Assembly (NCBI GenBank): GCA_026712715.1
Contig: JAPOPW010000025.1
Coordinates: forward strand, 62,001 to 126,000
Direction: 5' to 3'
From: Immundisolibacterales bacterium
Lineage (GTDB): Bacteria; Pseudomonadota; Gammaproteobacteria; HK1
DNA length: 64,000 nucleotides
In this document: positions 4,659 to 61,955 of the stretch, one piece after another
How the letters are laid out: each line of letters begins with the position of its first letter
Position numbering within the stretch: position 1 is the first letter of the stretch
Program-made: the position numbers and the translations under genes
Notes under the pieces: model-generated
Databases searched by the model: none
Told to the model about the DNA's origin: nothing
Seen by the model: the letters and a program-made list of their open reading frames with translations, nothing else

Positions 4659-4739
4659 GCGCGCGTCCGGCGGCGGAGACTCGAATGACCGGCTCGAAGT
4701 CACGCGCGAACGGACGCAACCCATGACCGGACGCCAACC

Positions 4740-5972: not shown

Positions 5973-6314
5973 ACGCTGCCGCGGCTTCCCCCATCTTCCT
6001 CGATGGAAGCCGGGCTCGGGGCGGCCGGCTTCGTCGGAATCGGAGTCGAAGGAGGAAATGCGGCACGGCGCGCGGCGCGCGAAACGGCCCGTTCGTTTCT
6101 TGCCCGCAAGGTTCACCGATGCCCCCCTTGGGGACAGGAAGCGGAACGAGGGCCGGAACGCAATGCACGGTCGGCCGGGTGCGACTTCCGGGCACGAATT
6201 CGAAGGCAAGAATCGAGGTGCGGGGCCGAACGGCGGGGAGCAGGATCACGGTCGCGACGCACCCCGGGAGCGGCTCGGGCCGTCGCGCCGAACCCGACCG
6301 ACAGGGGAGATAAC
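5973..6314. other. 342-bp intergenic stretch before ada
   Basis: No credible gene was found. It must contain the ada promoter, but I could not identify an Ada box or a convincing -35/-10 pair. The only clear signal is the AGGGGAGA ribosome site at 6302-6309, which fixes the ada start. Confidence 0.5.
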
Positions 6315-7400
6315 ATGGCCGACCTTACGATGATCGGAACCCCGATGCCGAGCCGATTCCCGACCGACGAGACGCGCTGGCAGGCGATCGTGAACCGCGA
6401 GCGTGGCGCGGCCGGGGAATTCTTCTACTCCGTGGCGACGACCGGCATCTATTGCCGGCCCGGCTGCCCGGCGCGCCGGCCGAGGCGCGAGCACGTGGGC
6501 TTCCACGATTCGCGCGAGGAGGCCGAGAGCGCGGGCTTCCGGCCCTGCCGGCGCTGCCGGCCGGACGAGCCCTCGCTCGCCGAGCGGCACGCCGGCGCGG
6601 TGGCCGCCGCCTGCCGCCTCATCGAGGCGGCCGAGACGATGCCGCGCCTCGACGAGCTCGCCGCCGTGGCCGGCATGAGCAGATTCCACTTCCACCGGGT
6701 CTTCAAGGCCGCCACCGGCTGCACGCCGCGGGCGTACGCCGCGGCGCGGCGCGCGGACCGGGTGCGCGAATCGCTCCGTGGCTCGGGGACCGTGACCGAC
6801 GCCATCTACGACGCCGGGTTCGGCTCGAACGGCCGCTTCTACGCGGATTCCCCCGGGATCCTCGGAATGCCCCCCGCCACCTTCCGCGAGGGCGGACGCA
6901 ACGAGACGATCCGGTTCGCGGTCGGCGAGTGTTCGCTCGGCGCCATCCTCGTCGCGTCCACCGCGAAGGGGGTGTGCGCGATCCTGCTCGGCGATGACCC
7001 GAACGCCCTCGTGCACGACCTCGAGGACCGCTTCGCGAAGGCCACGCTCCTCGGGGCGGAGCCGGAGTTCGAGAAGCTGGTCGCCCGCGTCGTCGCGTTC
7101 GTGGACGCGCCCACGCTCGGCCATGAATTGCCGCTCGACATCCGCGGGACGACGTTCCAGCAGCGCGTCTGGGAAGCGCTCCGGGACATTCCGGCCGGGT
7201 CGACCGCGAGCTACCGGGAGATTTCGGAACGCATCGGAGCGCCGGGCGCGGCGCGGGCGGTCGCGCGCGCGTGCGCGTCGAACCCCCTCGCGGTGGCGAT
7301 CCCCTGCCACCGGGTGGTCCGCAGCGACGGCGCCCCCGGCGGCTACCGCTGGGGGGTGGAGCGCAAGCAGGCGCTGCTCGAGCGCGAGGCAACGCCTTGA
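6315..7400 (+). CDS. ada: Bifunctional transcriptional activator / O6-alkylguanine-DNA alkyltransferase Ada
   Basis: The protein has 361 residues from ATG 6315, five bases after an AGGGGAGA ribosome site. The domain order is classical. First comes the zinc-binding methyl-phosphotriester domain with C47, C51, C78 and C81 (YCRPGC and PCRRC). An AraC-type helix-turn-helix follows around residues 95-190, then the methyltransferase domain with the PCHRV active site (C331). It repairs O6-methylguanine and, once methylated on the N-terminal Cys, activates alkylation-response genes. The next gene overlaps its stop codon and encodes an oxygenase predicted to act on damaged nucleic acid, so both probably form one adaptive-response operon. 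Confidence 0.96.
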   Translation: MADLTMIGTPMPSRFPTDETRWQAIVNRERGAAGEFFYSVATTGIYCRPGCPARRPRREHVGFHDSREEAESAGFRPCRRCRPDEPSLAERHAGAVAAACRLIEAAETMPRLDELAAVAGMSRFHFHRVFKAATGCTPRAYAAARRADRVRESLRGSGTVTDAIYDAGFGSNGRFYADSPGILGMPPATFREGGRNETIRFAVGECSLGAILVASTAKGVCAILLGDDPNALVHDLEDRFAKATLLGAEPEFEKLVARVVAFVDAPTLGHELPLDIRGTTFQQRVWEALRDIPAGSTASYREISERIGAPGAARAVARACASNPLAVAIPCHRVVRSDGAPGGYRWGVERKQALLEREATP

Positions 7401-8149
7401 GCGCCTCCCCTTCGCGGGCGCGCGAGCCGGCCGGGCCGAACTCCGTCTTCGCCGCGCGCATCGCGGCCCTCGACTGGCCGCCGATCGCAGCCGGCCTCGA
7501 CGCGGACGGCCACGCCCTGCTTCCGTCGTTGCTCAGCCCTCGGGAATGCCGGGGCCTCACCGCGCTGTACGAAAGCGGCGAGCTCTTCCGCAAGCGGGTG
7601 GTCATGTCCCGCCACGGCTACGGCCGGGGCGAGTACCGGTACTTCGCCTACCCGCTTCCGCGCCCGGTGGAGGCCCTTCGCACCCTGCTCTACCCGCCGC
7701 TCGCCGAGATCGCCAACCGGTGGAACGAAACGCTCCGCATCGATACCCGGTTCCCGGCCGCGCACGCGCAGTACCTCGAGCGCTGCCACCGCGCCGGCCA
7801 GACCCGGCCGACGCCGCTCGTGCTCCGCTACGGCGAAGGCGACTACAACCGCCTCCACCAGGACCTCTACGGAGAGCACGTCTTTCCGTTCCAGGCGACG
7901 GTCCTCCTCTCCGACCCCGCGCGCGACTTCGAGGGCGGCGAGTTCGTGCTCACCGAGCAGCGCCCGCGCATGCAGTCGCGGGTCGAGGTCGTGCCCCTCG
8001 CGCAGGGCGACGCGGTGGTCTTTCCCGTCCACCACCGCCCGGTGCGGGGCGCGCGCGGCTTCCATCGCGCGAACTTCCGCCACGGGGTGAGCCGCCTGCG
8101 CGCGGGCTCGCGCCACACCCTCGGCATCATCTTCCACGACGCCCGCTGA
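7397..8149 (+). CDS. 2OG-Fe(II) oxygenase (Oxygenase-NA family, predicted damaged-DNA dioxygenase)
   Basis: The protein has 250 residues starting at TTG 7397, which shares bases with the ada stop (TTGA overlap), so translation is coupled. The iron triad is visible: H154 and D156 in RLHQDLYG and H229 in FRHGVSRL. R239 lies ten residues on and is suited to bind 2-oxoglutarate. The family (PF09859 type) is predicted to demethylate or otherwise oxidise damaged nucleic acids. Direct coupling to Ada strongly supports an alkylation-repair role, although it is not AlkB itself. Activity is an inference from family and context. Confidence 0.88.
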   Translation: MSASPSRAREPAGPNSVFAARIAALDWPPIAAGLDADGHALLPSLLSPRECRGLTALYESGELFRKRVVMSRHGYGRGEYRYFAYPLPRPVEALRTLLYPPLAEIANRWNETLRIDTRFPAAHAQYLERCHRAGQTRPTPLVLRYGEGDYNRLHQDLYGEHVFPFQATVLLSDPARDFEGGEFVLTEQRPRMQSRVEVVPLAQGDAVVFPVHHRPVRGARGFHRANFRHGVSRLRAGSRHTLGIIFHDAR

Positions 8150-8292
8150 CCCGTCCTACCCGCCGGCCCGCGGGAAGCAGTTCACCACGTTCCGCCCGAC
8201 TCGAGGGCGCATGGCCGGAGCCGCCCTCACACCGCCCGCTCCGGTGGCGGTAGTCCGAAGCGGCTTCCCCACGGGCCGGACGCGCGGGTCCT

Positions 8293-8329
8293 TGACATGG
8301 AGTACTCATGTTTTCATACTTTTTTCATG
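8293..8329 (+). promoter_or_regulatory. Promoter/operator of the toxin-antitoxin pair, possibly leaderless
   Basis: TTGACA (8293-8298) and CATACT (8315-8320) are separated by 16 bp, a good sigma-70-like pair. The expected start of transcription falls at about 8326-8328, on the antitoxin ATG itself. The near-palindrome CATGGAGTACTCATG (8296-8310) overlaps the -35/spacer and is a plausible autorepression operator for the ribbon-helix-helix antitoxin. Confidence 0.5.
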
Positions 8330-8557
8330 CAGACGATGATTCAGATCCGTAGTGTCCCGGAGCCGCTTCGCAGACGGCTGAAGGCTCGCGCCGCCATGGA
8401 AGGCATGTCGATGTCGCGCTACATCTTGCGGGAACTCGAGAGGGCCCTCGAGCGACCGAGCCGACGCGAATTGCTTCAAAGGATTGGCTCGCAACCGGAG
8501 GTCAACCTGGAGCCGCCCCCCGCGGAGGTTCTCCGAGCGGAGCGTGCATCTCGCTGA
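8327..8557 (+). CDS. FitA/VapB-like ribbon-helix-helix antitoxin
   Basis: The protein has 76 residues from ATG 8327; alternatives in the same frame are ATG 8297 and ATG 8336. The N-terminus (MIQIRSVPEPLRRRLKARAA) is the DNA-binding beta strand and first helix seen in FitA-type antitoxins. The second helix is SMSRYILRELERAL, and the C-terminal tail should wrap the toxin. Its stop overlaps the toxin start by one base (TGATG). It neutralises the PIN toxin and represses its own promoter, judging by family and by the palindrome just upstream. Confidence 0.85.
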   Translation: MQTMIQIRSVPEPLRRRLKARAAMEGMSMSRYILRELERALERPSRRELLQRIGSQPEVNLEPPPAEVLRAERASR

Positions 8558-8946
8558 TGGTCCTGGATGCGTCGGCGGCGGTCGAGTTCGTGTTGAACAC
8601 GGCGGCGGGCAAGCGGCTCGCCGCACGGCTCGCGGACGAGTTCGCGGTCGTCCACGTGCCACATCTCATCGATCTGGAAATCGCCCAGGTGCTGCGCCGG
8701 TACGTTCGCGACGGAACTCTGACCGAACCGATGGCGATGACCGCGCTGGCCCGATGGCGAGAGCTCGATGCCGAGCGATATCCCCACGAGCCGTTCCTCG
8801 AACGGATTTGGCACCTTCGCGACAATTTGACCGCGTACGATGCGGTGTACGTGGCCCTCGCCGAAGCGCTGTCGATGGTCCTCGTGACCGGGGACCGGAA
8901 GCTGGCAGGAGCACCCGGCTTGCATGCCGTCATTGAGCTAGCGTAG
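8557..8946 (+). CDS. PIN-domain toxin (VapC/FitB-like ribonuclease)
   Basis: The protein has 129 residues. The four acidic metal-binding positions of PIN nucleases are all present: D4 (VLDASA), E41 (DLEIAQ), D95 (YDAVYVALAE) and D113 (TGDRKL), so the enzyme should be an active Mg-dependent RNase. It is translationally coupled to the upstream antitoxin by a one-base overlap. Its RNA target cannot be read from sequence. The pair is isolated from mobile genes; it may stabilise this segment or act in stress. Confidence 0.9.
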   Translation: MVLDASAAVEFVLNTAAGKRLAARLADEFAVVHVPHLIDLEIAQVLRRYVRDGTLTEPMAMTALARWRELDAERYPHEPFLERIWHLRDNLTAYDAVYVALAEALSMVLVTGDRKLAGAPGLHAVIELA

Positions 8947-9054
8947 TACGCGGACCGACGTCGCGCCGGCTCAGTTCCGCTGCGACGGACGATTCCATCA
9001 CGTGGCGGCTCAACTCCCTGGCGCGCATCTTTGGGCGAATCCGGTCAGTACCGT

Positions 9055-9927
9055 CTACCCGGCGAAGCGGGACTCGGGGAGGCCGGTGACGCCGAGGCCG
9101 TGGACTGCGAAGAGGGCGCCGTCGATGGGCCGGTCGCCGCGCACGTTGCCCGAGTCGCGGATCGACGGGACGAACGCGATGTCGAGGTCGGGGCCGCCGA
9201 ACATCACGCTCGCCGGTCGCGAGCACGGCATTTCGATCAGCCGGTCCAGGGTGCCGTCGGGGGCGAAGCGCGCGATCCGGCCGGCGTGCACGAGGGCGCT
9301 CCAGAGGAAGCCGTCGCGGTCGACCGTGCCGCCGTCGGGGCCGCTGTCGAAGGGGTTCGTGTCGACCGCGACCCGCTCCTCCCCGATGGCCCCGGTCGAC
9401 GTGTCGTAGTCGTAGGCGAAGATGGCGCGCCGGCCGGTGTCGGCGAAGTAGAAGGTCTCGCCGTCGGGGCTGAAGCAGGGGCCGTTGGCGACGAGGACGT
9501 CTCCCTTCAGGCGGTGGAGCGAGAGATCCGGATCGAGCCGGTAGATCGAGCCGCGCGGCTCGCGGCCGATCCGGGTCTGCATGGTGCCGGTGAGGAAGCG
9601 GCCCTGCCGGTCCACCTTGCCGTCGTTGAAGCGGGTGCTCGGGTCCGCGGATTCCGGATCGGAGACGAGGGTCGCCTCCCCGGTCCCGAAGTCGAAGGTG
9701 TGGACGCCGTTGCGGAGCGCGACGATCGCGCCTCCGCCCCGGCGAAGCGCCATCGACCCGATCATGTCCGGCACGCTGAAGTCACGCCGCTCGCCCGTCG
9801 CCCAGTCGAGCCGGTGGATCCGGGCGCCGCGCGTGTCCACCCAGTACAGGGCCTGCTCCTCGACATCCCAGAGGGGACCCTCGCCCAGCAGATCGATGGT
9901 CTCCCCGATCCGTTCGATTCTCGTCAT
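9055..9927 (-). CDS. SMP-30/gluconolactonase/LRE family protein
   Basis: The protein has 290 residues from ATG 9927. Six-bladed beta-propeller features include LGEGPLWDVEEQALYWVD (metal-binding Glu in blade 1), RFNDGKVDRQGRFLTGTM, NGPCFSPDGETFYFADT and PDGGTVDRDGFLWSALV, matching the Glu/Asn/Asp calcium or zinc site of SMP-30 lactonases. It probably hydrolyses a sugar lactone. The gene stands alone between the convergent toxin gene and the aminotransferase; substrate is unknown. Confidence 0.9.
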   Translation of the reverse strand: MTRIERIGETIDLLGEGPLWDVEEQALYWVDTRGARIHRLDWATGERRDFSVPDMIGSMALRRGGGAIVALRNGVHTFDFGTGEATLVSDPESADPSTRFNDGKVDRQGRFLTGTMQTRIGREPRGSIYRLDPDLSLHRLKGDVLVANGPCFSPDGETFYFADTGRRAIFAYDYDTSTGAIGEERVAVDTNPFDSGPDGGTVDRDGFLWSALVHAGRIARFAPDGTLDRLIEMPCSRPASVMFGGPDLDIAFVPSIRDSGNVRGDRPIDGALFAVHGLGVTGLPESRFAG

Positions 9928-10093
9928 GGTTCACCTCGTCGAACGATTCCCTCGATCCGGGCCCCGTCGCTCCGCCCGTGAAGCGCCGCGACCTGCCGGC
10001 AACGGTGACCCGCGCCGCGACCGTGCGGGGGGCTGGCGGCGGGCCGGCCTGCGGCCGTGACACACCTCGAATTCTTGACCCGAGACCCCGCCG

Positions 10094-11374
10094 TCATCCC
10101 TTCGTGCATTCGGTCAACGCCTGATCGAGGATAGCGAGCGCGGTGTCGATCTGGTCGCGGGTGACGGTCAGCGGCGGCGCGATCCGGAACACGTTGGCGT
10201 GTTGCGGCCGCCCGATGTTGAGACTCGCGCCGAGCTCGATGCAGCGCCGGCCCACCCTCGCGCCGAGCTCGTGGGCGGGCTCCCGGGTGTGCCGGTCCTC
10301 GACGAGCTCCATTCCGATGAGGAGGCCGCGCCCGCGGACGTCTCCGATCGATTCGTGGCGCTGCTTGAGGTCGATGAGACCGCTCTTCAAGTGCCGCCCG
10401 AGCTCGCGGGCCCGCACCTCGAGCCGGTCGCGCACCAGGATCTCGATGACCTTGCTTCCGACCGCGGCGGGAAGCGGGTCCGCGGTGTGGGTCGTGTAGA
10501 ACAGGAAGTCGCGTTCGTGGCACGCCTCCTCGACCTCCGGGGAGGCGACCGTCGCCGACAGCGGCAGTCCCGCCCCGAGCGTCTTTGAGAGGGTCAGGAT
10601 GTCGGGGACCACCCCCTCGTGCTCGAACGCGAACCGGTCGCCGGTGCGCCCGAGGCCGGTCTGCGCCTCGTCCAGGATGAGCAGCATCCCGCGGCGCCGG
10701 CAGTGATCGGCAAGCGCCGCGAGGTAGCCCTCGGGCAGCTCGATGATGCCGCCCGAGCTCAGGATGGGCTCGGCGATCATCGCGGCGAGGCTCCCGACCG
10801 ACTGGCGGTCGATCATCTCGAACCCGAAGTCGAGCTCGGCCCGCCAGTCGTACTCGCCGTTGGACGCGAACGGGGAGCGGTAGGCGTGCGGGGTCGGCAA
10901 TGCGAGCACCCCGGGCATCGGGGCTCCGTAGCCGCGCCGGGCGCCGTTGAAGGTGGCCGCGGCGGCGCCGCCGGTGACGCCGTGCCAGGACCGGTCGAAG
11001 GCCACCACCTCGAAGCGCCCGGTCGCGAGCTTGGCCATCTTGATGGCCGCCTCGTTGGACTCGGCGCCGGTGCTCAGCGGCAGCACCCTGGAGAGCGACA
11101 CGGGGAGCAGGGCGCTCAACGCCGAGGCGAATTCGAGGACCACGTCCGAGAGAAAGCTGCTGTGCAGGTGATCGAGGCGGGTCATCGCCTCGCCGACGGT
11201 GGCCACGATCTCCGGATGGGCGTGCCCGAGGATCGCGCTCATCTGCCCGGAGGTGAAGTCCAGGATCTCGCGCCCGTCGCGGTCGCGCACGTACGCACCG
11301 CCGGCGGACGAGATGATCGTCTCGGAAAACTCGCCGGTGTACCGGAACAGGTGCTCGGCATCGGGCGAAGCCAT
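10094..11374 (-). CDS. dgdA: 2,2-dialkylglycine decarboxylase (PLP, aminotransferase class III)
   Basis: The protein has 426 residues. ATG 11374 was chosen because AAGGAG sits about nine bases upstream; upstream in-frame Mets at 11383 and 11404 lack a well-placed site. The PLP lysine is K264 in LSKTLGAGLP and the pyridine-contacting Asp is D235 in LDEAQTG. Residues special to dialkylglycine decarboxylase are kept: Q44 (SGQMSA), W130 (SWHGVTG) and the Arg of FRIAPPLTV. The enzyme decarboxylates 2-methylalanine-type amino acids coupled to transamination of pyruvate. Whole-length resemblance to the Burkholderia enzyme as I remember it makes this assignment strong for a class III protein. Confidence 0.88.
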   Translation of the reverse strand: MASPDAEHLFRYTGEFSETIISSAGGAYVRDRDGREILDFTSGQMSAILGHAHPEIVATVGEAMTRLDHLHSSFLSDVVLEFASALSALLPVSLSRVLPLSTGAESNEAAIKMAKLATGRFEVVAFDRSWHGVTGGAAAATFNGARRGYGAPMPGVLALPTPHAYRSPFASNGEYDWRAELDFGFEMIDRQSVGSLAAMIAEPILSSGGIIELPEGYLAALADHCRRRGMLLILDEAQTGLGRTGDRFAFEHEGVVPDILTLSKTLGAGLPLSATVASPEVEEACHERDFLFYTTHTADPLPAAVGSKVIEILVRDRLEVRARELGRHLKSGLIDLKQRHESIGDVRGRGLLIGMELVEDRHTREPAHELGARVGRRCIELGASLNIGRPQHANVFRIAPPLTVTRDQIDTALAILDQALTECTKG

Positions 11375-11541
11375 GTCATCCATCTCCTTCGAAAGCGGGT
11401 TCATTGTGGCGCAATGCCCGTTCCCGGTCACGGCGAGCGGTGCCGGCGAAGACGTTCGGCGGGCGCCCCGAACCGCGCTCACGAGCCCTGGCCGCCGTCC
11501 CGTCGGCGGCGCTCGTTGCGGCGCGCTGAGGGGCGGGCGGC

Positions 11542-51827: not shown

Positions 51828-53063
51828 TTAGTCCGCGGCGGCCAGCCGGACCATCGCGTCGAGCAGGGTCTGGCCGCCGGCCGCAAGGTCGCCCGGCGTC
51901 GCGTTCTCGATCTCGTTGTGGCTGATGCCGTCCTCGCAGGGCACGAAGATCATCCCGGTCGGGGCGACCCGGGAGACGTAGCAGGCGTCGTGGCCGGCCC
52001 CGCTCACGATGTCCATGTGCTCGAAGCCGCCCGCCTCGGCCGCCTCGCGGACCGCCGCGACGCAACGCGGATCGAAGGGGGTGGCCGGAAAGTGCCAGAT
52101 CTGGCGGAGGTCGAGATCGAGACCGATCTCGCCCGCGATCGATTCGCAGGCCGACCTCAGGTCCGCGTCCATCCGCGTGAGCGTGTCCTCGATCGGATGC
52201 CGGAAGTCGACGGTGAAGAAGACGCGGCCCGGGATCGTGTTGCGCGAATTCGGGGACACCTCCAGCATGCCGACGGTGGAGCAGGCGTTCGGCTGGTGCG
52301 CGAGGCCGATGCGGTTCACCGCGTCCACCATGCGGGCGGCACCCACCAGCGCGTCGCGTCGCCGGCGCATCGGGGTCGGGCCCGCGTGGGCCTCCATTCC
52401 CGTCACCGTGATCTCGTACCAGCGCTGGCCCTGCGCCCCGGTCACCACCCCGACCGTCTTCTCCTCCGCCTCGAGGATGGGCCCCTGCTCGATGTGGGCC
52501 TCGAGGTACGCCCCGACCTCGTGCTCTCCGACCCGCTCCTTCCCGGCATAGCCGATGCGCGCGAGCTCGTCCCCGAACGTCTTTCCCTCCGGGTCGGTCC
52601 GCGAGAGCACGAAGTCGAGGTCGAACGCGCCACCGAACGCCCCCGAGGCCATCATCGCCGGAGCGAACCGCGAGCCCTCCTCGTTGGTCCACGCGACCAC
52701 CTCGATCGGCGCGTCGGTCTCGTAGCCGTAGTCGTTGAGGGTGCGGATGAGCTCGAGCCCCGCGAGCACCCCGTAGGCGCCGTCGAACTTGCCGCCGGTC
52801 GGCTGGGAGTCGAGGTGACTCCCGGTCATGACCGGCGCGCGGTCCGGGCTTCGCCCCGCCCGCCGGGCGAAGATGTTCCCCACCTGGTCCACGCTCACCT
52901 CGCAGCCCGCTTCCTCGCACCAGCGAACGAAGAGATCGCGTCCCTCCCGGTCGAGGTCGGTGAGCGCGAGCCGGCAGACCCCGCCCTTCTCGGTCGCCCC
53001 GATCTCGGCGAGCTCCATCAGGCTCGCCCACAGCCGGTCGCCGTTGATCTTGAGATTGTCCAC
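51828..53063 (-). CDS. M20-family Zn-dependent hydrolase (N-carbamoyl-amino-acid hydrolase/allantoate amidohydrolase type)
   Basis: The protein has 411 residues from ATG 53063. Metal ligands appear in order: TGSHLDSQPTGGKFDGAYGV (His and Asp), WTNEEGSRF (Glu), AHIEQGPILE (His) and SGAGHDACYVS (His). GMEAHAGPTPM is the dimerisation-domain signature. Family members hydrolyse ureido compounds: beta-ureidopropionate, N-carbamoyl-L-amino acids or allantoate. No pyrimidine or purine pathway genes are near, so the substrate stays open. Confidence 0.92.
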   Translation of the reverse strand: MDNLKINGDRLWASLMELAEIGATEKGGVCRLALTDLDREGRDLFVRWCEEAGCEVSVDQVGNIFARRAGRSPDRAPVMTGSHLDSQPTGGKFDGAYGVLAGLELIRTLNDYGYETDAPIEVVAWTNEEGSRFAPAMMASGAFGGAFDLDFVLSRTDPEGKTFGDELARIGYAGKERVGEHEVGAYLEAHIEQGPILEAEEKTVGVVTGAQGQRWYEITVTGMEAHAGPTPMRRRRDALVGAARMVDAVNRIGLAHQPNACSTVGMLEVSPNSRNTIPGRVFFTVDFRHPIEDTLTRMDADLRSACESIAGEIGLDLDLRQIWHFPATPFDPRCVAAVREAAEAGGFEHMDIVSGAGHDACYVSRVAPTGMIFVPCEDGISHNEIENATPGDLAAGGQTLLDAMVRLAAAD

Positions 53064-53612
53064 TCGCCGCTCCTCGCCATGCCGTTCTCGCGCGCAACTC
53101 TAGTCCATCGCGGGCGGCGGAGGGAACGGCGCGGGCGCCTCCGCGGCGGTCGCGCCACGGCTCCGTCACCGAGCGATGCGGGGATAATGTCCGGACAGCC
53201 ACGGCATCGACGGGAAGAAGGGCTTGACGACGGACCCGGTCCCGTTCCGATCGGCCGGCGGCGGCGGCGGGCCCGGCGCGGGCTGCGTCGCCGGCCGGAC
53301 GTCCGCGTGGACCGGGACTCCTCGAGGGGCCCCCAATTTCTTCGGACGAGTCACGTTTGCCAATCGATATGAGGTCGGAATGAGGAACGAATCGTACGAG
53401 GCTGCTACCGCTACGGAGCGGCCGGGACCCGAACGGGGATGGGTGGCTTCGAACCGGTCTCGTCGGTCCGAGGCGCAGTGTCGCTGGAATTCGTGCGAAG
53501 GGCCTGGATTCCCTGGCCGGAAGGAGGTTTCGGCGAGATTCGAGGCTCCGAGGGGGAACGCAGACCCGGACACGGCGTGGGTTCGGCGGCCGGAGCCGGC
53601 TCGGGCCGCGTC
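53064..53612. other. 549-bp interval without a gene, containing a dispersed repeat
   Basis: It separates the divergent amidohydrolase and flavoprotein genes. The main content is repeat copy B (53315-53478). The frame open upstream of the flavoprotein is not a credible extension. Confidence 0.5.
53315..53478. repeat. Dispersed repeat family 1, copy B
   Basis: About 164 bases share five ordered blocks with copy A (29431-29581), including CGGACGAGTCACGTTT, GTACGAGGCTGCT and GGTGGCTTCGAAC, and the last 19-base block with copy C (46.7 kb). Orientation is the same as copy A. Confidence 0.75.
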
Positions 53613-54989
53613 ATGAAGCCGGCGATCGAGACCGACGTGGCCGTCGTCGGCGGCGGTGGCGCGGGCCTCATGGCCGCGGCCACCGCGGCCACGGTCGGGG
53701 ACGGCCTCGACGTCCTGCTGCTGGAACGCGATGCGGGCGAGCCCTGCAACTCCCTCATCTCCTCGAGCTTCATCCCCGCGGCGGGGTCGCGTCTTCAGCG
53801 CGCGGCCGGAATCGAGGACTCCGCCGAAGAGATGGCCGCGGACATCCTCCGGAAGAACGGCCGCCGGAGCGATCCGGAGGTGACCCTCGAGCTCTGCCGC
53901 CGGTCGGCCGAGACCATCCACTGGTTCATCGACGGTCTCGGCGTCGACCTCGAGTTTGCGCCCGAAGTCGCGTGGATCGGGCATTCCCATCCGCGCATGC
54001 ACAGCCACCCGACACGAAGCGGCATGCCCGTCATCGAGCGGATGCGCGAGCGCTTGGTGTCCCTTGGCAATGCCACCGTGCTCGACGAAACCACCGGAAC
54101 CGGGCTCATCCGGGACGCGGGCGGCGCCGTCACCGGCGTCACCGCCCGCCGGCACGGAGCGGAGCTTCGCATCGCGGCCCGGCGGGTCGTGCTCGCGACC
54201 GGCGGGTTCAATGCGAATCGCGAGATGCTGGCGCGGTACATCCCCGAAATGGCGGACGCGCCCAATATCGGCGCGCGTTCCAGTCGGGGCGACGGCATCG
54301 GGTGGGGAATGGCGATCGGCGCGGCCGTGGACCACATGAGCGGCTATCAGGGCCGGGACTGCATCTTCGACGACGGCACGCGCCTCACGCCGGGGGTGAT
54401 CAACGAGGGCGGCATCGCGGTCAACGCGACGGGCCGGCGCTTCGTCGGCGAGGACCGGGACTACTCGGAACTCGCCGCCGTCTATCGGGCGCAGCCGGGA
54501 GGCTTCGCGGTCTTCGTCTGGGACGCGCGTATCCAGCGCATGACGGAGAACATGCACGTCATGCGCGAAGCCATGCGCAAGGGCGGAATCGCGAAGTGCG
54601 ATCGCGTCGTCGGCATCGCCGAGCGATTCGGGTTGCCGGCGGGCACCCTCGCGGAGACGATTGACGGCTACAACACGGGCGTGCGGTCCGGGAGCGACGC
54701 GTACGCGCGCAAGAACCTCACCGAGCCCCTCGCGCCACCGTTCCTCGCCGCCAGGGTCACCGGCGCGATGGCGCATACCCAGGGCGGCCTGAGGGTGGAT
54801 ACCGCCTGCCGGGTGCTCCGGCCGGACGGACGTCCCGTGCCGAACCTCCACGCCGGCGGCAACACCATGGCGGGACTGTCCGGCGACTCCGCGGGCGGCT
54901 ACACCTCGGGCAACGGTCTTCTCGTCGCCTATGCGAGCGGCATGATCATCGGCCGGCACGCCGTCGCTTCCATCAAGGGCGAACGCTAG
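53613..54989 (+). CDS. FAD-dependent oxidoreductase (fumarate reductase/succinate dehydrogenase flavoprotein-like)
   Basis: The protein has 458 residues from ATG 53613. FAD-binding VAVVGGGGAGLMAAATAA begins at residue 9. RRVVLATGGFNANREM, SSRGDGIGWGMAIGAAVDHM, NATGRRFVGED and the C-terminal NLHAGGNTMAGLSGDSAGGYTSGNG are typical of the soluble flavocytochrome-like or 3-ketosteroid-dehydrogenase-like branch. A single polypeptide without iron-sulfur partner argues against a respiratory complex. Substrate is unknown. Confidence 0.9.
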   Translation: MKPAIETDVAVVGGGGAGLMAAATAATVGDGLDVLLLERDAGEPCNSLISSSFIPAAGSRLQRAAGIEDSAEEMAADILRKNGRRSDPEVTLELCRRSAETIHWFIDGLGVDLEFAPEVAWIGHSHPRMHSHPTRSGMPVIERMRERLVSLGNATVLDETTGTGLIRDAGGAVTGVTARRHGAELRIAARRVVLATGGFNANREMLARYIPEMADAPNIGARSSRGDGIGWGMAIGAAVDHMSGYQGRDCIFDDGTRLTPGVINEGGIAVNATGRRFVGEDRDYSELAAVYRAQPGGFAVFVWDARIQRMTENMHVMREAMRKGGIAKCDRVVGIAERFGLPAGTLAETIDGYNTGVRSGSDAYARKNLTEPLAPPFLAARVTGAMAHTQGGLRVDTACRVLRPDGRPVPNLHAGGNTMAGLSGDSAGGYTSGNGLLVAYASGMIIGRHAVASIKGER

Positions 54990-54990
54990 C

Positions 54991-55055
54991 CTCAATCTTT
55001 CATGAATCTTCCGTTACGGACACCAATTTACCCGCGGTAACGGGCCATACCCCCC
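54991..55055. repeat. Dispersed repeat family 2, copy 2
   Basis: It starts directly after the flavoprotein stop and aligns with 24027-24090 over about 60 bases (see that entry). The rest of 54990-55215 has no gene. The two copies have in common that each follows a TAG stop within a few bases. Confidence 0.5.
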
Positions 55056-55152
55056 TCGATTCGCCTCGACGGCGAAACGAGCAACGAACTGCTGGCTACG
55101 CCGTCACCGTCTTTAGGTCCGTGCGTCCCACCACCACGGAACCCGAGGATTG

Positions 55153-55170
55153 TTGTCGCCTTCGCGACAA
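55153..55170 (-). terminator. Hairpin after the AAA-DUF4435 gene
   Basis: TTGTCGC (55153-55159) and GCGACAA (55164-55170) enclose a 4-base loop, about 46 bp past the stop. It could end transcription of the defence-like gene, though the T-run is poor. Confidence 0.45.
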
Positions 55171-55215
55171 GAATCGGTGAAAACTCCGGGTCAAATCGAT
55201 CGGCCGTCGACTCAT

Positions 55216-56838
55216 CTATCCCGTCCCGATGACCGCACCAATGGAGTCGCGCATCCACCTTGTCGAGGCAAGAGCGCCGACCTGCAGATTGAAGCCGGCC
55301 AAGTAGTCTCCGGGTCGATTCGTTTTCATATCGAGGAACGGATAGTACTTCTCGAAATCAGTCGAGTCTGTCGCTCGCGTGATTTCCTCGATTGCCTTCC
55401 TCTTCAGTTCCCTCGAGAACTCTTTGATGATTTCGTAGCTGTTGCGGTTCTTCTCCAAATTGACCAGCATCCGGTCGCGAACCGCTTTCATGTTGCGCTG
55501 CACCGCCTCGCGGTAGTCCATTTCGTCGAACCCCTTGGGTGAAAGCTCCGCAAGATTCTTCGGATGGTAGAGATAACTCTCGATGGAATAGTATCCAAGA
55601 ACAAGAAGATTGGCGCGCCTTCGACGAATTTCCCGGATTTCCTCCGTGCCGAGAAAGTCACGGTCTATCAACCCGAAAAAGTCAGGAAGTGCTCTTGCCT
55701 GAATGGTGATTGCATTCTTGTCCCGGGCAACCACGAACAAGAAGCCAGGAAAATCAATCGAGTTGTAGAGCGGGGCGTTCTTTCCTTCGCACAAGACCAG
55801 TTTGCTGTTCGGAAATACCTTGAGCGCCGAATCGCGAGGTACTGCGATGTCGAAATTGTGCTCGGATTTCGGTGATGGTCGCAAAGTCAAAGGTCGATCG
55901 AAATCGAACTCGTCGAAGTCGATAATTGCCGAGTCGTCGCTTGCGTTCGCATATTCGATGAAACCGAGCGAATGACTCGCCGTCCAGAGTTGGCTGTTCT
56001 CCGGAATCCAATTTTCAACAATCTCTTCAAGGAGCGCGTACTGGAGCCGGGTGTGCAGATGAACGTCGAGTTCGTCGATAAAGTAGATTGCATTGGGAAA
56101 GTGTTCGCGGCGGACGAACAGGTTGAGAAGAATATTGAATACTTCCTTCTCGCCACTGCTGAGGAGGTCGTAGTGAATTTCTGAATTACCCTTTTGGAAT
56201 CGTACGTCCGGAGCCTTTTGCTCCAATGCGGGGATCATGCGAATAAGACGCAGGGTGGTCGAAGAAACACCGTTGAAAATTCTTGCCAAGCTATCGTTGA
56301 TGGGGTCGACAAATCGTGCGCGCATGGTCTCGGAATTAAAATCCTCGCCCCAAACTTCGCGGAGGATCTTCTCTGTCACCTGGGAGATGTCCGTGTCGAA
56401 ACGAATATCGTGTTCAATGAATCTCTGAGGACGGTCTGAATCGGAAGCCAAATTGGCAGAAGCGCGGCGTTGAGGACGAAGTTCGGGCACTGTTCGGAAG
56501 GAACTTCTCCCGTAAAACGCTGATTTGCTGTTCCAACTCTGAGGAGTCGTGACTGTATGCGCTCCTTTCGAACGCGTCAGGTTGACGCCGCCGCCCAAGT
56601 TGATCGAAACTGACGACTCGGAACCGCTGATTTTTTCCCAATAATTAACGTAGTAGTCCCTGATGCCCTGTTTATGGGGGGCCGAGATGTACTCGAATGC
56701 ATCGAAGACGGATGACTTCCCGCTTCCGTTGGCGCCAATCAGGAGCACGAGCTTTGGCGGGGCCTGACACGATGAAAGGTCGATCTCCAGGTCGGTGAAG
56801 CGTTTGAAATTCTTTACGCGCAACTGTTCGATGTTCAT
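55216..56838 (-). CDS. AAA (OLD/AriA-type) ATPase fused to a DUF4435/TOPRIM-like domain, probable defence gene
   Basis: The protein has 540 residues. The N-terminal ABC-type ATPase has KNFKRFTDLEIDLSS, Walker A GANGSGKSS (35-43), signature LLSSGEKE (225-232), Walker B IYFIDELD (251-257) and switch His in TASHS (286-290). From about residue 345 a second domain shows LVLCEGKNAPLY (E352), FFGLIDRDF (D392, D394) and YYSIESYLY (E420), the acidic pattern of DUF4435 TOPRIM-like nucleases. The same two domains form AriA and AriB of the PARIS anti-phage system, sometimes fused. DNA is clearly AT-richer than its neighbours, a sign of transfer. No partner gene is adjacent. Confidence 0.82.
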   Translation of the reverse strand: MNIEQLRVKNFKRFTDLEIDLSSCQAPPKLVLLIGANGSGKSSVFDAFEYISAPHKQGIRDYYVNYWEKISGSESSVSINLGGGVNLTRSKGAHTVTTPQSWNSKSAFYGRSSFRTVPELRPQRRASANLASDSDRPQRFIEHDIRFDTDISQVTEKILREVWGEDFNSETMRARFVDPINDSLARIFNGVSSTTLRLIRMIPALEQKAPDVRFQKGNSEIHYDLLSSGEKEVFNILLNLFVRREHFPNAIYFIDELDVHLHTRLQYALLEEIVENWIPENSQLWTASHSLGFIEYANASDDSAIIDFDEFDFDRPLTLRPSPKSEHNFDIAVPRDSALKVFPNSKLVLCEGKNAPLYNSIDFPGFLFVVARDKNAITIQARALPDFFGLIDRDFLGTEEIREIRRRRANLLVLGYYSIESYLYHPKNLAELSPKGFDEMDYREAVQRNMKAVRDRMLVNLEKNRNSYEIIKEFSRELKRKAIEEITRATDSTDFEKYYPFLDMKTNRPGDYLAGFNLQVGALASTRWMRDSIGAVIGTG

Positions 56839-57321
56839 CGGAGTTCCGTCGATTCTGAACTGGTTTTCTTGTGCCGCGCGCGTTTGAGCGAAATCTGCGG
56901 GGTCAACTCACGACGCGAACGGCACCTGGGACCTGTGGCGGATCGGTTCGACCGCCGAAATCATACCTCAAGAGCATGGGGCCGCGCCGACGGATGACAT
57001 TGGACAGCCGTGGCGAGGATCCGGCTCGTTCCGTCGCGGATTCTCGGGAGTCATGTCGCGAGAGAGGGGAGCGCAGCGACGACGAGTGGGCGTTGCGCTG
57101 GTTGGCGGCAGGGCGGGGTCAGGCCGTGGCGCCCCCGGAGCGCCATTCTTCGGGTCTGTGCCACCGGGGTGACTCACGAATTCGTGTCGGGCCACGTTTC
57201 CTTGCGGTCGGCGGGGAGCGGGCGATTCCATCCGACCAGCCGCGCGGTCCTTGCGACGGTTGCCACGGGGACCGCAATTTCGCTCAAATGGCCATCTGCA
57301 ACCTTGCGTGGAGAAGAAGCC
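56839..57321. other. 483-bp interval without a gene
   Basis: It lies between the divergent AAA-DUF4435 gene and an acyl-CoA ligase and should carry both promoters. GC content rises sharply from left to right. The only distinct element is a perfect 12-bp palindrome, CACGAATTCGTG, at 57175-57186. Open frames through it carry no recognisable domain. Confidence 0.45.
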
Positions 57322-58863
57322 ATGAACACGGGCGCGTTCCTCGCCAAGACCGCCGTGCTCCACCCCGGCCGCCCGGCCCTCGTGCTCGGAGTCGAGACCG
57401 TCGCCTCGTACGCGCAGTTCGCGGACCTCAGCGCCCGGCTCGCCCGCGGCCTCGTCGAGCGCTTCGGTCTCCGGCCGGGCGACCGGTGCGGCATCGCGAT
57501 GACCAACGCGCCCGAGTTCCTGGTCGCCCTCTTCGGCTGCTGGTACGCGAACGTGTGCGCCGTGCCGATGAACGCGAAGCTCCACCGCCGCGAGTTCGCG
57601 TACATCCTTGAGAACTCGGGCGCCCGAGCCTGCTTCGTGAACGGCGCGCTCGGCGAGACCCTGGCCGGGCTCGACCGGGAGGTCGACGCGCTCGAGCACC
57701 TGGTGCGCACGGACGACGCGCAAGGGTGGGACGCGCTCCTTGCGGGCGACCCGCTGCCCCTTCGCGACTGCGATCCCGACGATCCGGCGTGGCTGTTCTA
57801 CACGAGCGGCACCACCGGCCGGCCGAAGGGCGCCACCCTCACCCACCGCAACCTCGTCTCGCAGACCATGAACTACTTCTGCGACGTCGACACGGTGAGC
57901 GAGCGCGACTGCATCATCCATTCCGCCCCGATGTCGCACGCCTCCGGCTGCTACGCCCTCCCCCACGTCGCGCGGGGGGCGGCGCAGGTCGTGCCGGAGA
58001 GCGGCGGGTTCCACCCGGAGGAGATCATCGACCTCATCGACCACCACCCCGGGGCGAGCTTCTTCTTCGCCCCGACGATGATCGTCCGCCTGCTCGAGTC
58101 TCCCCGCATCGCGAAGGTCAACCTCGACCACCTCAAGACCATCGTCTACGGCGGCGGGCCGATGTACGTCGAGGACACCCGGCGGGCGCTCGCCGCGCTC
58201 GGGCCGAAGCTCGTCCAGATCTACGGCCAGGGGGAGGCCCCGATGACCATCACCGGGCTCGCGCGCGAGCTCCACCTCGACACGGAGCACCCCCGCTACC
58301 TCGAGCGCCTGGGATCGGTGGGCACCGCCCGGACCGACGTCGAGGTTCGGATCGTCGGTCCCGACGACGAGCCGCTTCCCCCGGGCCAGACGGGCGAGGT
58401 TGCCTTGCGCGGCGACGTGGTGATGAAGGGCTACTGGAACAACCCGGAGGCGACGCGCGACGCCCTTCGCGGCGGGTGGCTCCACACCGGAGACCTCGGC
58501 GCGATGGACGAGGACGGCTTCGTCACCCTCAAGGACCGTTCCAAGGACATGATCATCTCGGGAGGCACCAACATCTATCCGCGCGAGATCGAGGAGGTGC
58601 TGCTGCGCCACCCCGGGGTGCTGGAGGCATCCGTGGTCGGCCGGCCGGACCCCGAATGGGGCGAGGAGGTGGTCGCCTTCGTGGTGGCGACGACCCCGGG
58701 GGCGCGGGTACCTGAAGCGGAGCTCGACACTCTCTGCCTCGAGCACATCGCGCGCTTCAAGCGGCCCCGCGACTACCGCTTCATCGACACCCTGCCCAAG
58801 AACAACTACGGCAAGGTGCTCAAGACGGAGCTTCGTTCCCGGCTCGCCGCCGAGGCGCGGTGA
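57322..58863 (+). CDS. Class I adenylate-forming acyl-CoA ligase
   Basis: The protein has 513 residues from ATG 57322 after GAGAAGAA. The ATP loop LFYTSGTTGRPKGATLTH, adenine-side IYGQGEAPMTITG, WLHTGDLGAMDEDGFVTLKDR and the terminal lysine motif NNYGKVLKTELR are intact. The usual YGxTE motif reads YGQGE. It activates a carboxylic acid as acyl-AMP and transfers it to CoA; chain type is not evident. The phosphopantetheinyl transferase gene is convergent downstream. Confidence 0.93.
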   Translation: MNTGAFLAKTAVLHPGRPALVLGVETVASYAQFADLSARLARGLVERFGLRPGDRCGIAMTNAPEFLVALFGCWYANVCAVPMNAKLHRREFAYILENSGARACFVNGALGETLAGLDREVDALEHLVRTDDAQGWDALLAGDPLPLRDCDPDDPAWLFYTSGTTGRPKGATLTHRNLVSQTMNYFCDVDTVSERDCIIHSAPMSHASGCYALPHVARGAAQVVPESGGFHPEEIIDLIDHHPGASFFFAPTMIVRLLESPRIAKVNLDHLKTIVYGGGPMYVEDTRRALAALGPKLVQIYGQGEAPMTITGLARELHLDTEHPRYLERLGSVGTARTDVEVRIVGPDDEPLPPGQTGEVALRGDVVMKGYWNNPEATRDALRGGWLHTGDLGAMDEDGFVTLKDRSKDMIISGGTNIYPREIEEVLLRHPGVLEASVVGRPDPEWGEEVVAFVVATTPGARVPEAELDTLCLEHIARFKRPRDYRFIDTLPKNNYGKVLKTELRSRLAAEAR

Positions 58864-59790: not shown

Positions 59791-61041
59791 TCAGCTCCGG
59801 TAGCCGGCGTTGATGTCGATGTAGGCGTGGGTGAGGTCGCAGGTCCAGATGGTGTCCCGCCCGGTGCCGACGCCGACGTCGGCGCGCAGGCGGACCTCCT
59901 GGCCCATGAGGTGCCCGGTTGCCCGCTCCTCGGAGTAGCCCTCCCGGATCCGGCCGCCCTCGGCGCACTGCTCGTCGCCGATCCACAGCCGCAGCCGATC
60001 GCGCTCCGCCGCCTCGCCGGCCTTGCCGACGGCCATGACGAGCCGGCCCCAGTTCGCGTCCGACGCGGCGAGCATGGTCTTCACGAGCGGCGAATTGCCG
60101 ATGCTGAGCGCGATCCGGCGCGCCGCCGCGTCGCTCTCGGCCCCTTCGACGGTGACCTCGACGAACTTGCTCGCCCCCTCCCCGTCACGAACGATCTGGT
60201 GGGCGAGGTCGAGCATCGTCTCGTCGAGCAGGGCCCGCAGCTCGTCCAGGCGCGGATCAGCCGCCTCCGTGACCGGCGTGGCGGGCTTGACCGCCCCGGT
60301 GGCGAAGAGCAGCACGGTATCGCTCGTCGAGGTGTCCGAATCGACGGTGATCCGGTTGAAGCTGCGGTCGACCGCCCCGGTGAGCAGGGCCTGCAGCACC
60401 GGGGCGGGAAGGTCCGCGTCGGTGAACGCGAACCCGAGCATCGTCGCCATGTCCGGCGCGATCATCCCGCTCCCCTTGGCGATCGCGGCGACCCGCACCG
60501 TCTCGCCGTCGAGGCGCGCCTCGCCCCCCGCTCCCCTCCGCGAGGCGTCCGTCGTGCGGATGGCGTCGGCCGCGGCCCGCCAGCGCTCCGGGGCGGGCGG
60601 GGCGAGGGCTTGCGCCGCCTGCTCCACCGCCGCGCGCATCGCCTGCGCGCCGAGCGGCTCGCCGATGACGCCGGTCGAGGCGAGGGAGACGTCCTCGGGA
60701 TGCGTATCGAGGGCGTCCGCGACCGCCCGCGCCGAGGCGCGCGCCGCGTCCTCGCCCGCCGCGCCGGTGAACGCGTTGGCGTTGCCGGCGTTGCACAGCA
60801 CCGCGCGCGCCGTGCCGCGCGCAACGTGCCGGCGGCACCAGTCGACCGGCGCGGAGGCGCAGCGTGACCGGGTGAACACCCCCGCGACCCGGGACCCCGG
60901 CGCGAGGGCGGCGAGCATGACGTCGGGGCGCCCCCGGTAGCGAAGCTCCGCCGCGTGGGCGGCAAGCAGCACCCCGGCGACCGGCGGAAGCTCGGGGAAG
61001 GCGGCGGGGGCGAGGGGAGATACGGAAGGTGACTCGCTCAC
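59791..61041 (-). CDS. argJ: Bifunctional glutamate N-acetyltransferase / amino-acid acetyltransferase ArgJ
   Basis: The protein has 416 residues from ATG 61041. The self-cleavage site is APDMATMLGF with nucleophile T200, which splits the precursor into alpha and beta chains. VLCNAGNANAFTG, DVSLASTGVIGEPL, AIAKGSGMIAPD and NRITVDSDTSTSD are invariant ArgJ blocks. It recycles the acetyl group from N-acetylornithine to glutamate in arginine synthesis. No other arg gene is close. Confidence 0.97.
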   Translation of the reverse strand: MSESPSVSPLAPAAFPELPPVAGVLLAAHAAELRYRGRPDVMLAALAPGSRVAGVFTRSRCASAPVDWCRRHVARGTARAVLCNAGNANAFTGAAGEDAARASARAVADALDTHPEDVSLASTGVIGEPLGAQAMRAAVEQAAQALAPPAPERWRAAADAIRTTDASRRGAGGEARLDGETVRVAAIAKGSGMIAPDMATMLGFAFTDADLPAPVLQALLTGAVDRSFNRITVDSDTSTSDTVLLFATGAVKPATPVTEAADPRLDELRALLDETMLDLAHQIVRDGEGASKFVEVTVEGAESDAAARRIALSIGNSPLVKTMLAASDANWGRLVMAVGKAGEAAERDRLRLWIGDEQCAEGGRIREGYSEERATGHLMGQEVRLRADVGVGTGRDTIWTCDLTHAYIDINAGYRS

Positions 61042-61308: not shown

Positions 61309-61572
61309 ATGTCAGATAGCACGATTCATGCCGACGTCAGGCTCGGCGCCCAGGGGCGGCTCGTGGTGCCCGCCTCGATCCGAAAGGCGCTCGGGTTCCG
61401 CCCCGGCGAGACCCTCGTGGCCCGGATCGAGAACGGACACCTGGTGATCGAGAAGCCCGAAGCGGTGGAGCGCCGGCTGCATGCCCATTTCCGGAAGTTC
61501 GAGGGACGCAGCCTCGCCGAAGAGCTGATCGCCGAGCGCCGCGAGGAAGCGCGCAGGGAGGGTTCGGGTTGA
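61309..61572 (+). CDS. AbrB/MazE-type antitoxin
   Basis: The protein has 87 residues from ATG 61309. The swapped-hairpin DNA-binding domain is visible as VRLGAQGRLVVPASIRKALG, FRPGETLVARIENGHLVIEK, followed by a charged helical tail (RSLAEELIAERREEARRE) that should bind the toxin. It overlaps the PIN toxin start by four bases. The 267 bp upstream contain no gene and I could not fix a promoter. Confidence 0.9.
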   Translation: MSDSTIHADVRLGAQGRLVVPASIRKALGFRPGETLVARIENGHLVIEKPEAVERRLHAHFRKFEGRSLAEELIAERREEARREGSG

Positions 61573-61955
61573 GTGCGGTGCTCGACGCTTCCGCTCTCCT
61601 CGCCTACCTCCAGCGCGAGCCCGGCGCCGGCTCGGTCAAGGCGGTGCTCGGCAGCGCCATCATGTCCACCGTCAACTGGACGGAGGTGATCCAGAAGGCG
61701 GCCGACTCGGAGGGCGAAGCGGCCGAGCTTCGAGTGGGCCTCGAGTCTCTCGGGCTGATCCTCGAGCCCTTCTCCGCATCCCAGGCCGGGATTGCCGGCT
61801 CGCTCCGCGACTCCACGATGGAGCTCGGTCTCTCTCTCGGCGACCGGGCGTGCCTCGCGCTCGCGATCGAGAAGGGGGAGACGATCCTGACCGCGGACCG
61901 CATCTGGCGGCGGCTGCGTCTCGGGATCGGGATCGGGATCGAAGTCATCCGATAG
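61569..61955 (+). CDS. PIN-domain toxin partner of AbrB-type antitoxin
   Basis: The protein has 128 residues from TTG 61569 in a TTGA overlap with the antitoxin. Acidic PIN residues are D6 (VLDASALLAY), E39 (NWTEVIQK), D92 (GDRACLALA) and D110 (TADRIW). It is a third, distinct toxin-antitoxin module in the window, and the only one with an AbrB-fold partner. A GGGATC triplet repeat encodes the GIGIGI near its end. Confidence 0.9.
   Translation: MSAVLDASALLAYLQREPGAGSVKAVLGSAIMSTVNWTEVIQKAADSEGEAAELRVGLESLGLILEPFSASQAGIAGSLRDSTMELGLSLGDRACLALAIEKGETILTADRIWRRLRLGIGIGIEVIR

What the first reader, a model, noticed from the sequence alone, without database searches (positions are those of the whole stretch)
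55216..56838. Single-gene AAA ATPase-DUF4435 fusion, a PARIS/OLD-like defence candidate on foreign DNA
One 540-residue chain joins an ABC-type ATPase (Walker A 35-43, signature 225-232, Walker B 251-257) to a TOPRIM-like domain with E352, D392, D394 and E420. These are the halves AriA and AriB of the PARIS anti-phage system, here fused and unusually short. The gene is visibly AT-richer than its neighbours and stands alone between a dispersed repeat and a metabolic gene. That such fusions exist is known; its small size and sequence could make it a separate subtype.
Basis: partly seen in the sequence, partly recalled or inferred. Interest (0 to 1): 0.78.

Follow-up and report, generated by a model that had tools for sequence, protein, structure and literature searches.

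The report
Divergent one-gene PARIS-like phage defence
One foreign-looking bacterial gene encodes a sensor-type ATPase joined to a predicted RNA- or DNA-cutting domain; it resembles the one-gene form of the known PARIS anti-phage system but belongs to a separate branch that standard detection models barely recognise, and its relatives ride on prophages and plasmids.

Summary
The gene is real: 540 aa, minus strand, 56838..55216, GC 52% (third position 63%) against about 70% (87-94%) around it. The N-terminal half is an OLD/SMC-type ABC ATPase. The C-terminal domain passes no Pfam cut-off, but its family profile aligns with the DUF4435/Toprim half of recognised one-gene AAA-DUF4435 (PARIS AriAB) fusions (probability 98%, E 3e-14, score 98.9 against at most 21 for shuffles). 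E351 (not E352), D392, D394 and E420 are invariant among relatives. The gene is missing at this site in both congeners: one joins the flanks directly, the other holds different DNA. Nearest relatives (60-64% identity) are Vicinamibacterales (Acidobacteriota). Distant ones sit on a Zymomonas plasmid and beside phage integrase, repressor, tail and tape-measure genes. Intact Vicinamibacterales copies show dN/dS 0.2-0.3, while about half the copies there are broken. I read it as a divergent branch of single-chain PARIS-like defence (ATPase sensor, Toprim nuclease effector), probably acting by abortive infection. Trigger and substrate are inferred, not shown. New variant of a known kind; moderate interest.

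The parts
55216..56838 (-). Single-chain OLD/SMC-type ABC ATPase - DUF4435-like Toprim protein, 540 aa (P0001), stop codon included
   Evidence: Intact ORF; Pfam AAA_15 3.5e-19, AAA_21 1.6e-14, SMC_N 8e-13; PADLOC best AriAB 1e-21, 75.3 bits
56710..56736 (-). Walker A, residues 35-43 (GANGSGKSS, K41)
   Evidence: Translation; G35 N37 G38 G40 K41 S43 invariant in 9 rows
56143..56166 (-). ABC signature, residues 225-232 (contains LSSGEK 226-231)
   Evidence: L226 S227 G229 E230 K231 invariant
56068..56088 (-). Walker B, residues 251-257 (IYFIDEL, D255 E256)
   Evidence: I254 D255 E256 invariant
55972..55974 (-). H289, switch histidine of the ABC ATPase (SHS)
   Evidence: H289 S290 invariant
55543..55806 (-). 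DUF4435-like Toprim core, residues 345-432
   Evidence: hhalign of the family C-terminus with 9 fused AAA-DUF4435 proteins: prob 98.2, E 2.8e-14; window clade alone 90.7, 1.3e-6; shuffles score at most 21 against 98.9; alternating strands and helices in the AF2 model at moderate confidence
55786..55788 (-). E351, first Toprim acidic residue (LVLCEG)
   Evidence: Invariant; aligned with FVEG of fused AriAB
55657..55665 (-). D392-x-D394 (LIDRDF), Toprim DxD motif
   Evidence: D392 and D394 invariant, R393 is L in some phage copies; aligned with GVIDRD of fused AriAB
55579..55581 (-). E420 (SIESYL), conserved DUF4435 acidic residue
   Evidence: E420 and Y422 invariant; aligned with EVENLF of fused AriAB
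53130..57317 (.). Segment without counterpart at this site in both congeners (FAD gene 53439-54989 plus the ATPase-Toprim gene); G001 joins the flanks across 75 bp, G002 has about 6.9 kb of different DNA there
   Evidence: blastn of the window against L058 and L057

Best explanation
The gene is a horizontally acquired, one-gene anti-phage defence system of the OLD/PARIS kind, in a divergent branch. Shown here: an N-terminal OLD/SMC-type ABC ATPase fused to a C-terminal domain homologous to DUF4435 (the AriB Toprim nuclease family), with the ATPase motifs and the E351/D392/D394/E420 acidic set invariant; accessory placement; purifying selection on both halves in the Acidobacteriota copies; phage and plasmid carriage of relatives. 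Inferred: the ATPase domains assemble and act as the sensor, holding the Toprim domain inactive. A phage product, such as an anti-restriction protein, binds the ATPase and changes its conformation. Two Toprim domains then form a two-metal nuclease that cuts host RNA (most likely tRNA, as AriB does), stopping translation and aborting the infection. Because the effector is covalently tethered, activation must occur in cis and not by release of an AriB dimer.
For: ATPase: Pfam AAA_15/AAA_21/SMC_N, 9 of 9 family members. Toprim: hhalign with recognised fused AAA-DUF4435 proteins 98.2%, E 2.8e-14, far above reversed and shuffled controls; family C-terminal HMM hits 9 of 9 fused proteins; these pass the DUF4435 cut-off and the three scanned are PADLOC AriAB at 360-577 bits; window C-terminus alone hits AriB weakly, 1.1e-3. 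Catalytic residues invariant. Foreign and accessory: GC, empty or replaced site in congeners, no full-length orthologue in 54 relatives, 3 of 398 in the phylum sample. Mobile carriage: between tRNA-His and an integrase (L071), beside a CI-type repressor (L069), a tape-measure gene (L072) and a minor tail gene (L070), Zymomonas plasmid. Selection: dN/dS 0.2-0.32 among intact Vicinamibacterales copies. Literature: PARIS occurs as a single-gene fusion (PMC9122126); AriB is a two-metal tRNase (PMC12409363).
Against: The window protein reaches neither the DUF4435 gathering score nor a full-length AriAB match. The family C-terminal HMM does not detect stand-alone DUF4435 proteins or an AAA_15-type AriAB fusion. 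The predicted structure is of low confidence (pLDDT 58 full length, 67 C-terminus), and Foldseek of the C-terminus gives nothing significant. There is no defence island or restriction system next to it. No functional data exist for this branch.
Confidence: 0.6

Rival explanations
1. It works like a class 1 OLD nuclease or the one-protein ATPase-Toprim systems HEC-04/IbfA: a single chain whose Toprim domain degrades or nicks DNA of the invader, with the ATPase as regulator, and no tRNA cleavage.
For: Single gene, no partner, outside defence islands, as class 1 OLD (PMC10568477). IbfA is a 518-aa ATPase-Toprim protein (PMC12111858). The best, non-significant Foldseek match of the C-terminus is an OLD Toprim domain, 6njx; the T. 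scotoductus OLD structure is among the full-length matches.
Against: The C-terminal domain aligns with DUF4435 fusions with strong statistics; no OLD, GajA or AriB chain is hit by the C-terminal profile in the PDB sequences.
Confidence: 0.25
2. It is an OLD-like ATPase-nuclease with a non-defence cellular role, carried as an ordinary accessory gene.
For: OLD-family proteins can have cell-cycle roles (archaeal Cran1, abstract of PMC12796447). In Vicinamibacterales six of eight carriers share one upstream flank, a quinoprotein-like gene, not a defence island.
Against: Patchy presence, broken copies in about half of the Vicinamibacterales carriers, absence from congeners, and carriage by prophages and a plasmid fit a conditionally useful defence gene better than a cell function.
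Confidence: 0.1
3. The window copy is a recently acquired gene with no current function, on its way to decay.
For: Related copies are broken in L005, L006, L063 and L044; compositional mismatch to the host; no recognisable promoter.
Against: Open reading frame intact over 540 codons, all motifs intact; non-synonymous distance to the nearest relatives about 0.28-0.32 with saturated synonymous distance.
Confidence: 0.05

Closest known systems
PARIS, single-gene AAA_21-type DUF4435 fusion (PADLOC AriAB PDLC02982)
   Same: One chain of about 540-560 aa, N-terminal ABC ATPase, C-terminal DUF4435 Toprim with E, DxD and E aligned
   Different: Separate clade with 100/100 support in a tree flagged for long branches; ATPase begins with an OLD/SMC-type strand (NFKRFTDL) that those fusions lack; below the DUF4435 cut-off; compact Toprim in the window clade
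PARIS, AAA_15-type fusion and two-gene AriA+AriB (PDLC02981, PDLC02979, PDLC02983; structures 8ux9, 8v45)
   Same: ATPase half gives the best PADLOC scores with these models (75.3 bits AriAB, 75.8 AriA); AriA structure found by the family profile; AriB weak hit for the window C-terminus
   Different: The fusion matched here (L091) is about 690 aa; the family C-terminal HMM does not detect L091 or stand-alone DUF4435 proteins; no separate effector gene
OLD class 1 (P2 Old, T. scotoductus OLD 6P74) and HEC-04/IbfA
   Same: Single gene, ABC ATPase plus Toprim, carried by phages or plasmids (PMC10568477, PMC12111858)
   Different: Toprim half aligns with DUF4435 and not detectably with OLD by sequence; IbfA itself was not fetched, but no enterobacterial plasmid gene matches over the full length
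PtuA / retron I-A ATPases (Septu, Retron-Eco7)
   Same: ATPase fold: best Foldseek and profile matches in the PDB
   Different: PtuA pairs with an HNH nuclease; here the effector is a fused Toprim domain and there is no HNH gene or reverse transcriptase

Membership tests
PARIS (AriA+AriB or fused AriAB) | ABC ATPase of the AAA_15/AAA_21 type (published cut-offs 32 and 27 bits) | tested here: met
   70.1 and 55.2 bits; rule from PMC9122126
PARIS (AriA+AriB or fused AriAB) | DUF4435 (PF14491) domain over the 27-bit cut-off | tested here: not met
   No DUF4435 match for the window protein; a Zymomonas homologue gives 17.7 bits
PARIS (AriA+AriB or fused AriAB) | Homology of the effector domain to DUF4435 by profile-profile comparison, catalytic residues aligned | tested here: met
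   Prob 98.2, E 2.8e-14; controls at noise; residues aligned
PARIS (AriA+AriB or fused AriAB) | Fused-protein profile score (published threshold 80 for AAA_15+DUF4435; PADLOC model used as a stand-in) | tested here: inconclusive
   Window 75.3, L003 62.3, L043 90.4, L072 99.8, Zymomonas 100.9 bits; the models may differ from the published ones
PARIS (AriA+AriB or fused AriAB) | Triggered by an anti-restriction protein; Toprim cleaves tRNA; abortive infection | not testable with these tools
   Needs experiments
OLD class 1 | Single gene with N-terminal ABC ATPase and C-terminal Toprim, no partner gene | tested here: met
   Architecture; neighbours are metabolic
OLD class 1 | Toprim half detectably related to OLD and closer to it than to DUF4435 | tested here: not met
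   C-terminal profile finds no OLD chain in the PDB sequences; structural match not significant; DUF4435 fusions found
Gabija (class 2 OLD) | Adjacent UvrD-like helicase gajB | tested here: not met
   Neighbours: FAD-binding oxidoreductase, AMP-binding ligase, M20 peptidase
Retron / Septu | Adjacent reverse transcriptase or HNH nuclease | tested here: not met
   No such gene among the identified neighbours

The most novel reading that the evidence does not exclude
This branch is a PARIS-like system in which sensor and nuclease cannot separate, so it must be switched on in cis, and the window/Acidobacteriota subclade, with its trimmed Toprim (shortened loop after the catalytic Glu and shortened second helix, Gly after the Glu replaced by Asn in Acidobacteriota), has a changed RNA or DNA target.
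Probability: 0.22. Interest if true: 0.6.

Novelty: new variant of a known kind. Interest (0 to 1): 0.42.

Why it matters
Two-gene PARIS works by releasing its AriB nuclease from an AriA complex. A review says it is unclear whether the one-gene fusions form a separate OLD class or operate differently (PMC10568477). This family gives a compact, phage-borne, single-chain set that current DUF4435 and AriAB models barely recognise. It would extend the count of such systems and offers material to test whether a tethered Toprim can be activated without release.

Tried and rejected
1) Pfam, PADLOC, NCBIfam and PHROG scans: no family over threshold for the C-terminal half. 2) AlphaFold of the full protein and of the C-terminal domain with 9 rows: low to moderate confidence; Foldseek of the C-terminus not significant, of the full protein dominated by the ATPase half; treated as weak evidence only. 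3) Dispersed-repeat idea: rejected. 4) Small-size subtype: rejected. 5) INPHARED phage records: no match, so phage carriage rests on IMG/VR contigs. 6) A second copy in the same genome: only a short P-loop match. 7) Pseudogene reading of the window copy: unlikely, see rivals.

Full report
OBSERVATION. The ORF is at 55216-56838 on the minus strand, 540 aa, ATG start, intact. Relatives start at the same methionine. GC is 0.51-0.53 over the gene against about 0.70 around it; third-position GC is 0.63 against 0.87-0.94 for the neighbours 53439-54989, 51828-53063 and 59791-61041 (the 57324-58863 line in that output was read out of frame and is not used). The claimed dispersed repeat was not found: both flanks are single-copy in the genome.

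WHAT THE PROTEIN IS. The N-terminal half hits AAA_15, AAA_21, SMC_N and AAA_23 over their cut-offs, and all nine members of the family alignment match these families. In the PDB its profile matches retron/Septu PtuA, Rad50/SMC, GajA and AriA. For the C-terminal 200 residues PADLOC sees only a weak AriB match (E 1.1e-3) and Pfam nothing relevant. A Zymomonas plasmid homologue gives DUF4435 at E 3e-3 and AriAB at 4.5e-7 for the same half.

TEST OF THE TOPRIM/DUF4435 READING. I fetched DUF4435 proteins over the Pfam cut-off from a sample of 398 genomes of the phylum. Nine are one-gene AAA-DUF4435 fusions, mostly 533-559 aa (two read shorter because of start choice). Three of these were scanned and are PADLOC AriAB at 360-577 bits. 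The family's C-terminal alignment (13 members) against the C-terminus of these nine gives hhalign probability 98.2%, E 2.8e-14, score 98.9. Reversed profiles score 15-18 and thirty column shuffles reach at most 21. The window clade alone (window plus four Vicinamibacterales) gives 90.7% and 1.3e-6. In the alignment LVLCEG pairs with VVFVEG, GLIDRD with GVIDRD, and IESYL with VENLF. A family C-terminal HMM finds all nine fusions but neither three stand-alone DUF4435 proteins nor an AAA_15-type AriAB fusion. The AF2 model of the domain shows alternating strands and helices with E351 and D392 at strand ends, at moderate confidence (pLDDT 67). Foldseek is not significant; the first hit is an OLD Toprim at E 0.42. 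Homology to DUF4435 is therefore well supported by sequence profiles, and the fold itself is not independently shown.

PHYLOGENY AND SIZE. In a 22-row tree the family (window, four Vicinamibacterales, G401, Zymomonas, six viral contigs) forms one side of a 100/100 branch against the nine recognised fusions. The window is sister to the Vicinamibacterales proteins (the program flags long branches, so deep placement is uncertain). The size is ordinary. A real difference within the family is that the window/Vicinamibacterales clade lacks about 12 residues after the catalytic Glu and about 10 in the region of the second Toprim helix, and is longer in the C-terminal tail. The Acidobacteriota proteins carry CEN where the window and the other members carry CEG.

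FOREIGN AND ACCESSORY. No full-length orthologue was found in 54 relatives, and 3 of 398 genomes of the phylum sample, the window's own included, carry the family. In congener G001 the sequence matching window 53129 is joined to that matching 57318 across 75 bp. G002 has about 6.9 kb of different, lower-GC DNA at the same place. The absent segment includes the FAD-binding oxidoreductase gene 53439-54989, whose relative lies on another contig in G001, so I cannot say whether both genes came together. The neighbours are metabolic: M20 peptidase, FAD_binding_2, AMP-binding ligase.

WHERE RELATIVES LIVE. In the Vicinamibacterales family group 8 of 28 genomes match. Four copies are intact. L005 lacks residues 175-231 with a frame change, L006 lacks 353-443 (the Toprim core), L063 retains only short pieces, and L062 has an internal gap and reaches a contig end (residue numbers are those of L003). 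Six of the eight share the same upstream flank, so the gene is partly vertical there and decaying. dN/dS among the intact ones is 0.20-0.32 overall and 0.16-0.30 for the Toprim core, so both halves are kept by selection. On viral contigs the homologue sits between a tRNA-His and an integrase (L071), beside a CI-type repressor with a ParB-like gene nearby (L069), beside a tape-measure gene (L072), beside a minor tail gene (L070), and in an element with several recombinase-like ORFs and a mobilisation-like ORF (L068; last description from reading the ORFs). L024 keeps only the ATPase half. INPHARED phages have no match. Such positions are usual for phage-borne defence cargo (general knowledge).

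MECHANISM. Shown: domain make-up, conserved catalytic sets, mobility, selection. Inferred from PARIS (PMC9122126, PMC12409363): ATPase as sensor, Toprim as two-metal nuclease, tRNA as the most likely target, growth arrest as the outcome. In two-gene PARIS the trigger releases AriB from an AriA hexamer. In a single chain this is impossible without proteolysis, so activation in cis is implied. I put defence of some kind at about 0.85, a PARIS-like RNase mechanism at 0.6 and OLD-like DNA cleavage at 0.25.

MEMBERSHIP AND NOVELTY. By the published detection rule (AAA domain plus DUF4435 over 27 bits, or AAA_15+DUF4435 fused profile over 80) the window protein is not formally PARIS: no DUF4435 hit, and 75.3 bits with the PADLOC AriAB model used as a stand-in. 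Several relatives score 90-101 with the same model, so part of the family is probably already counted as single-gene PARIS by current tools. I therefore class it as a new, divergent variant of a known kind.

LIMITS. That the host is in Pseudomonadota while the nearest relatives are in Acidobacteriota is inferred from the tool's kinship labels and from gene content of same-phylum genomes recalled from memory; it was not tested with a marker gene. The family tree has long branches. Phage carriage depends on IMG/VR's calling of contigs as viral, though the neighbouring phage genes were checked for four of them.

Noticed in passing
window 61309-61955: Small ORF of the SpoVT/AbrB look (no Pfam hit at 1e-8) overlapping a PIN-domain ORF (Pfam PIN 1.6e-12), a VapBC-like pair; the blastn match of G002 spans it, that of G001 skips it.
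   Followed up: partly
L057 (G002) 4643-11498: At the same chromosomal site the congener G002 carries two near-identical tandem genes of about 800 aa, membrane-protein-like, GC 59%: the site looks like a repeated target for insertion.
   Followed up: partly
L006 8001-9330: Vicinamibacterales copy whose deletion removes just the Toprim core (residues 353-443) with a frame change, while the ATPase half stays open.
   Followed up: partly
L065 (G376) 6577-8474: A copy of this family with two TAA stops lies between pdxT-like and tgt-like genes; the same genome also has an intact fused AAA-DUF4435 gene elsewhere (L083).
   Followed up: no
L071 1047-4650: tRNA-His, then the homologue, then an integrase gene on the other strand: a prophage end with the defence-like gene as outermost cargo.
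   Followed up: partly
window 56883-56894 and 57277-57288: Perfect 12-nt inverted repeat (TTTGAGCGAAAT/ATTTCGCTCAAA) flanking the stretch upstream of the gene; the right arm is conserved at the empty site of G001; could be chance.
   Followed up: no
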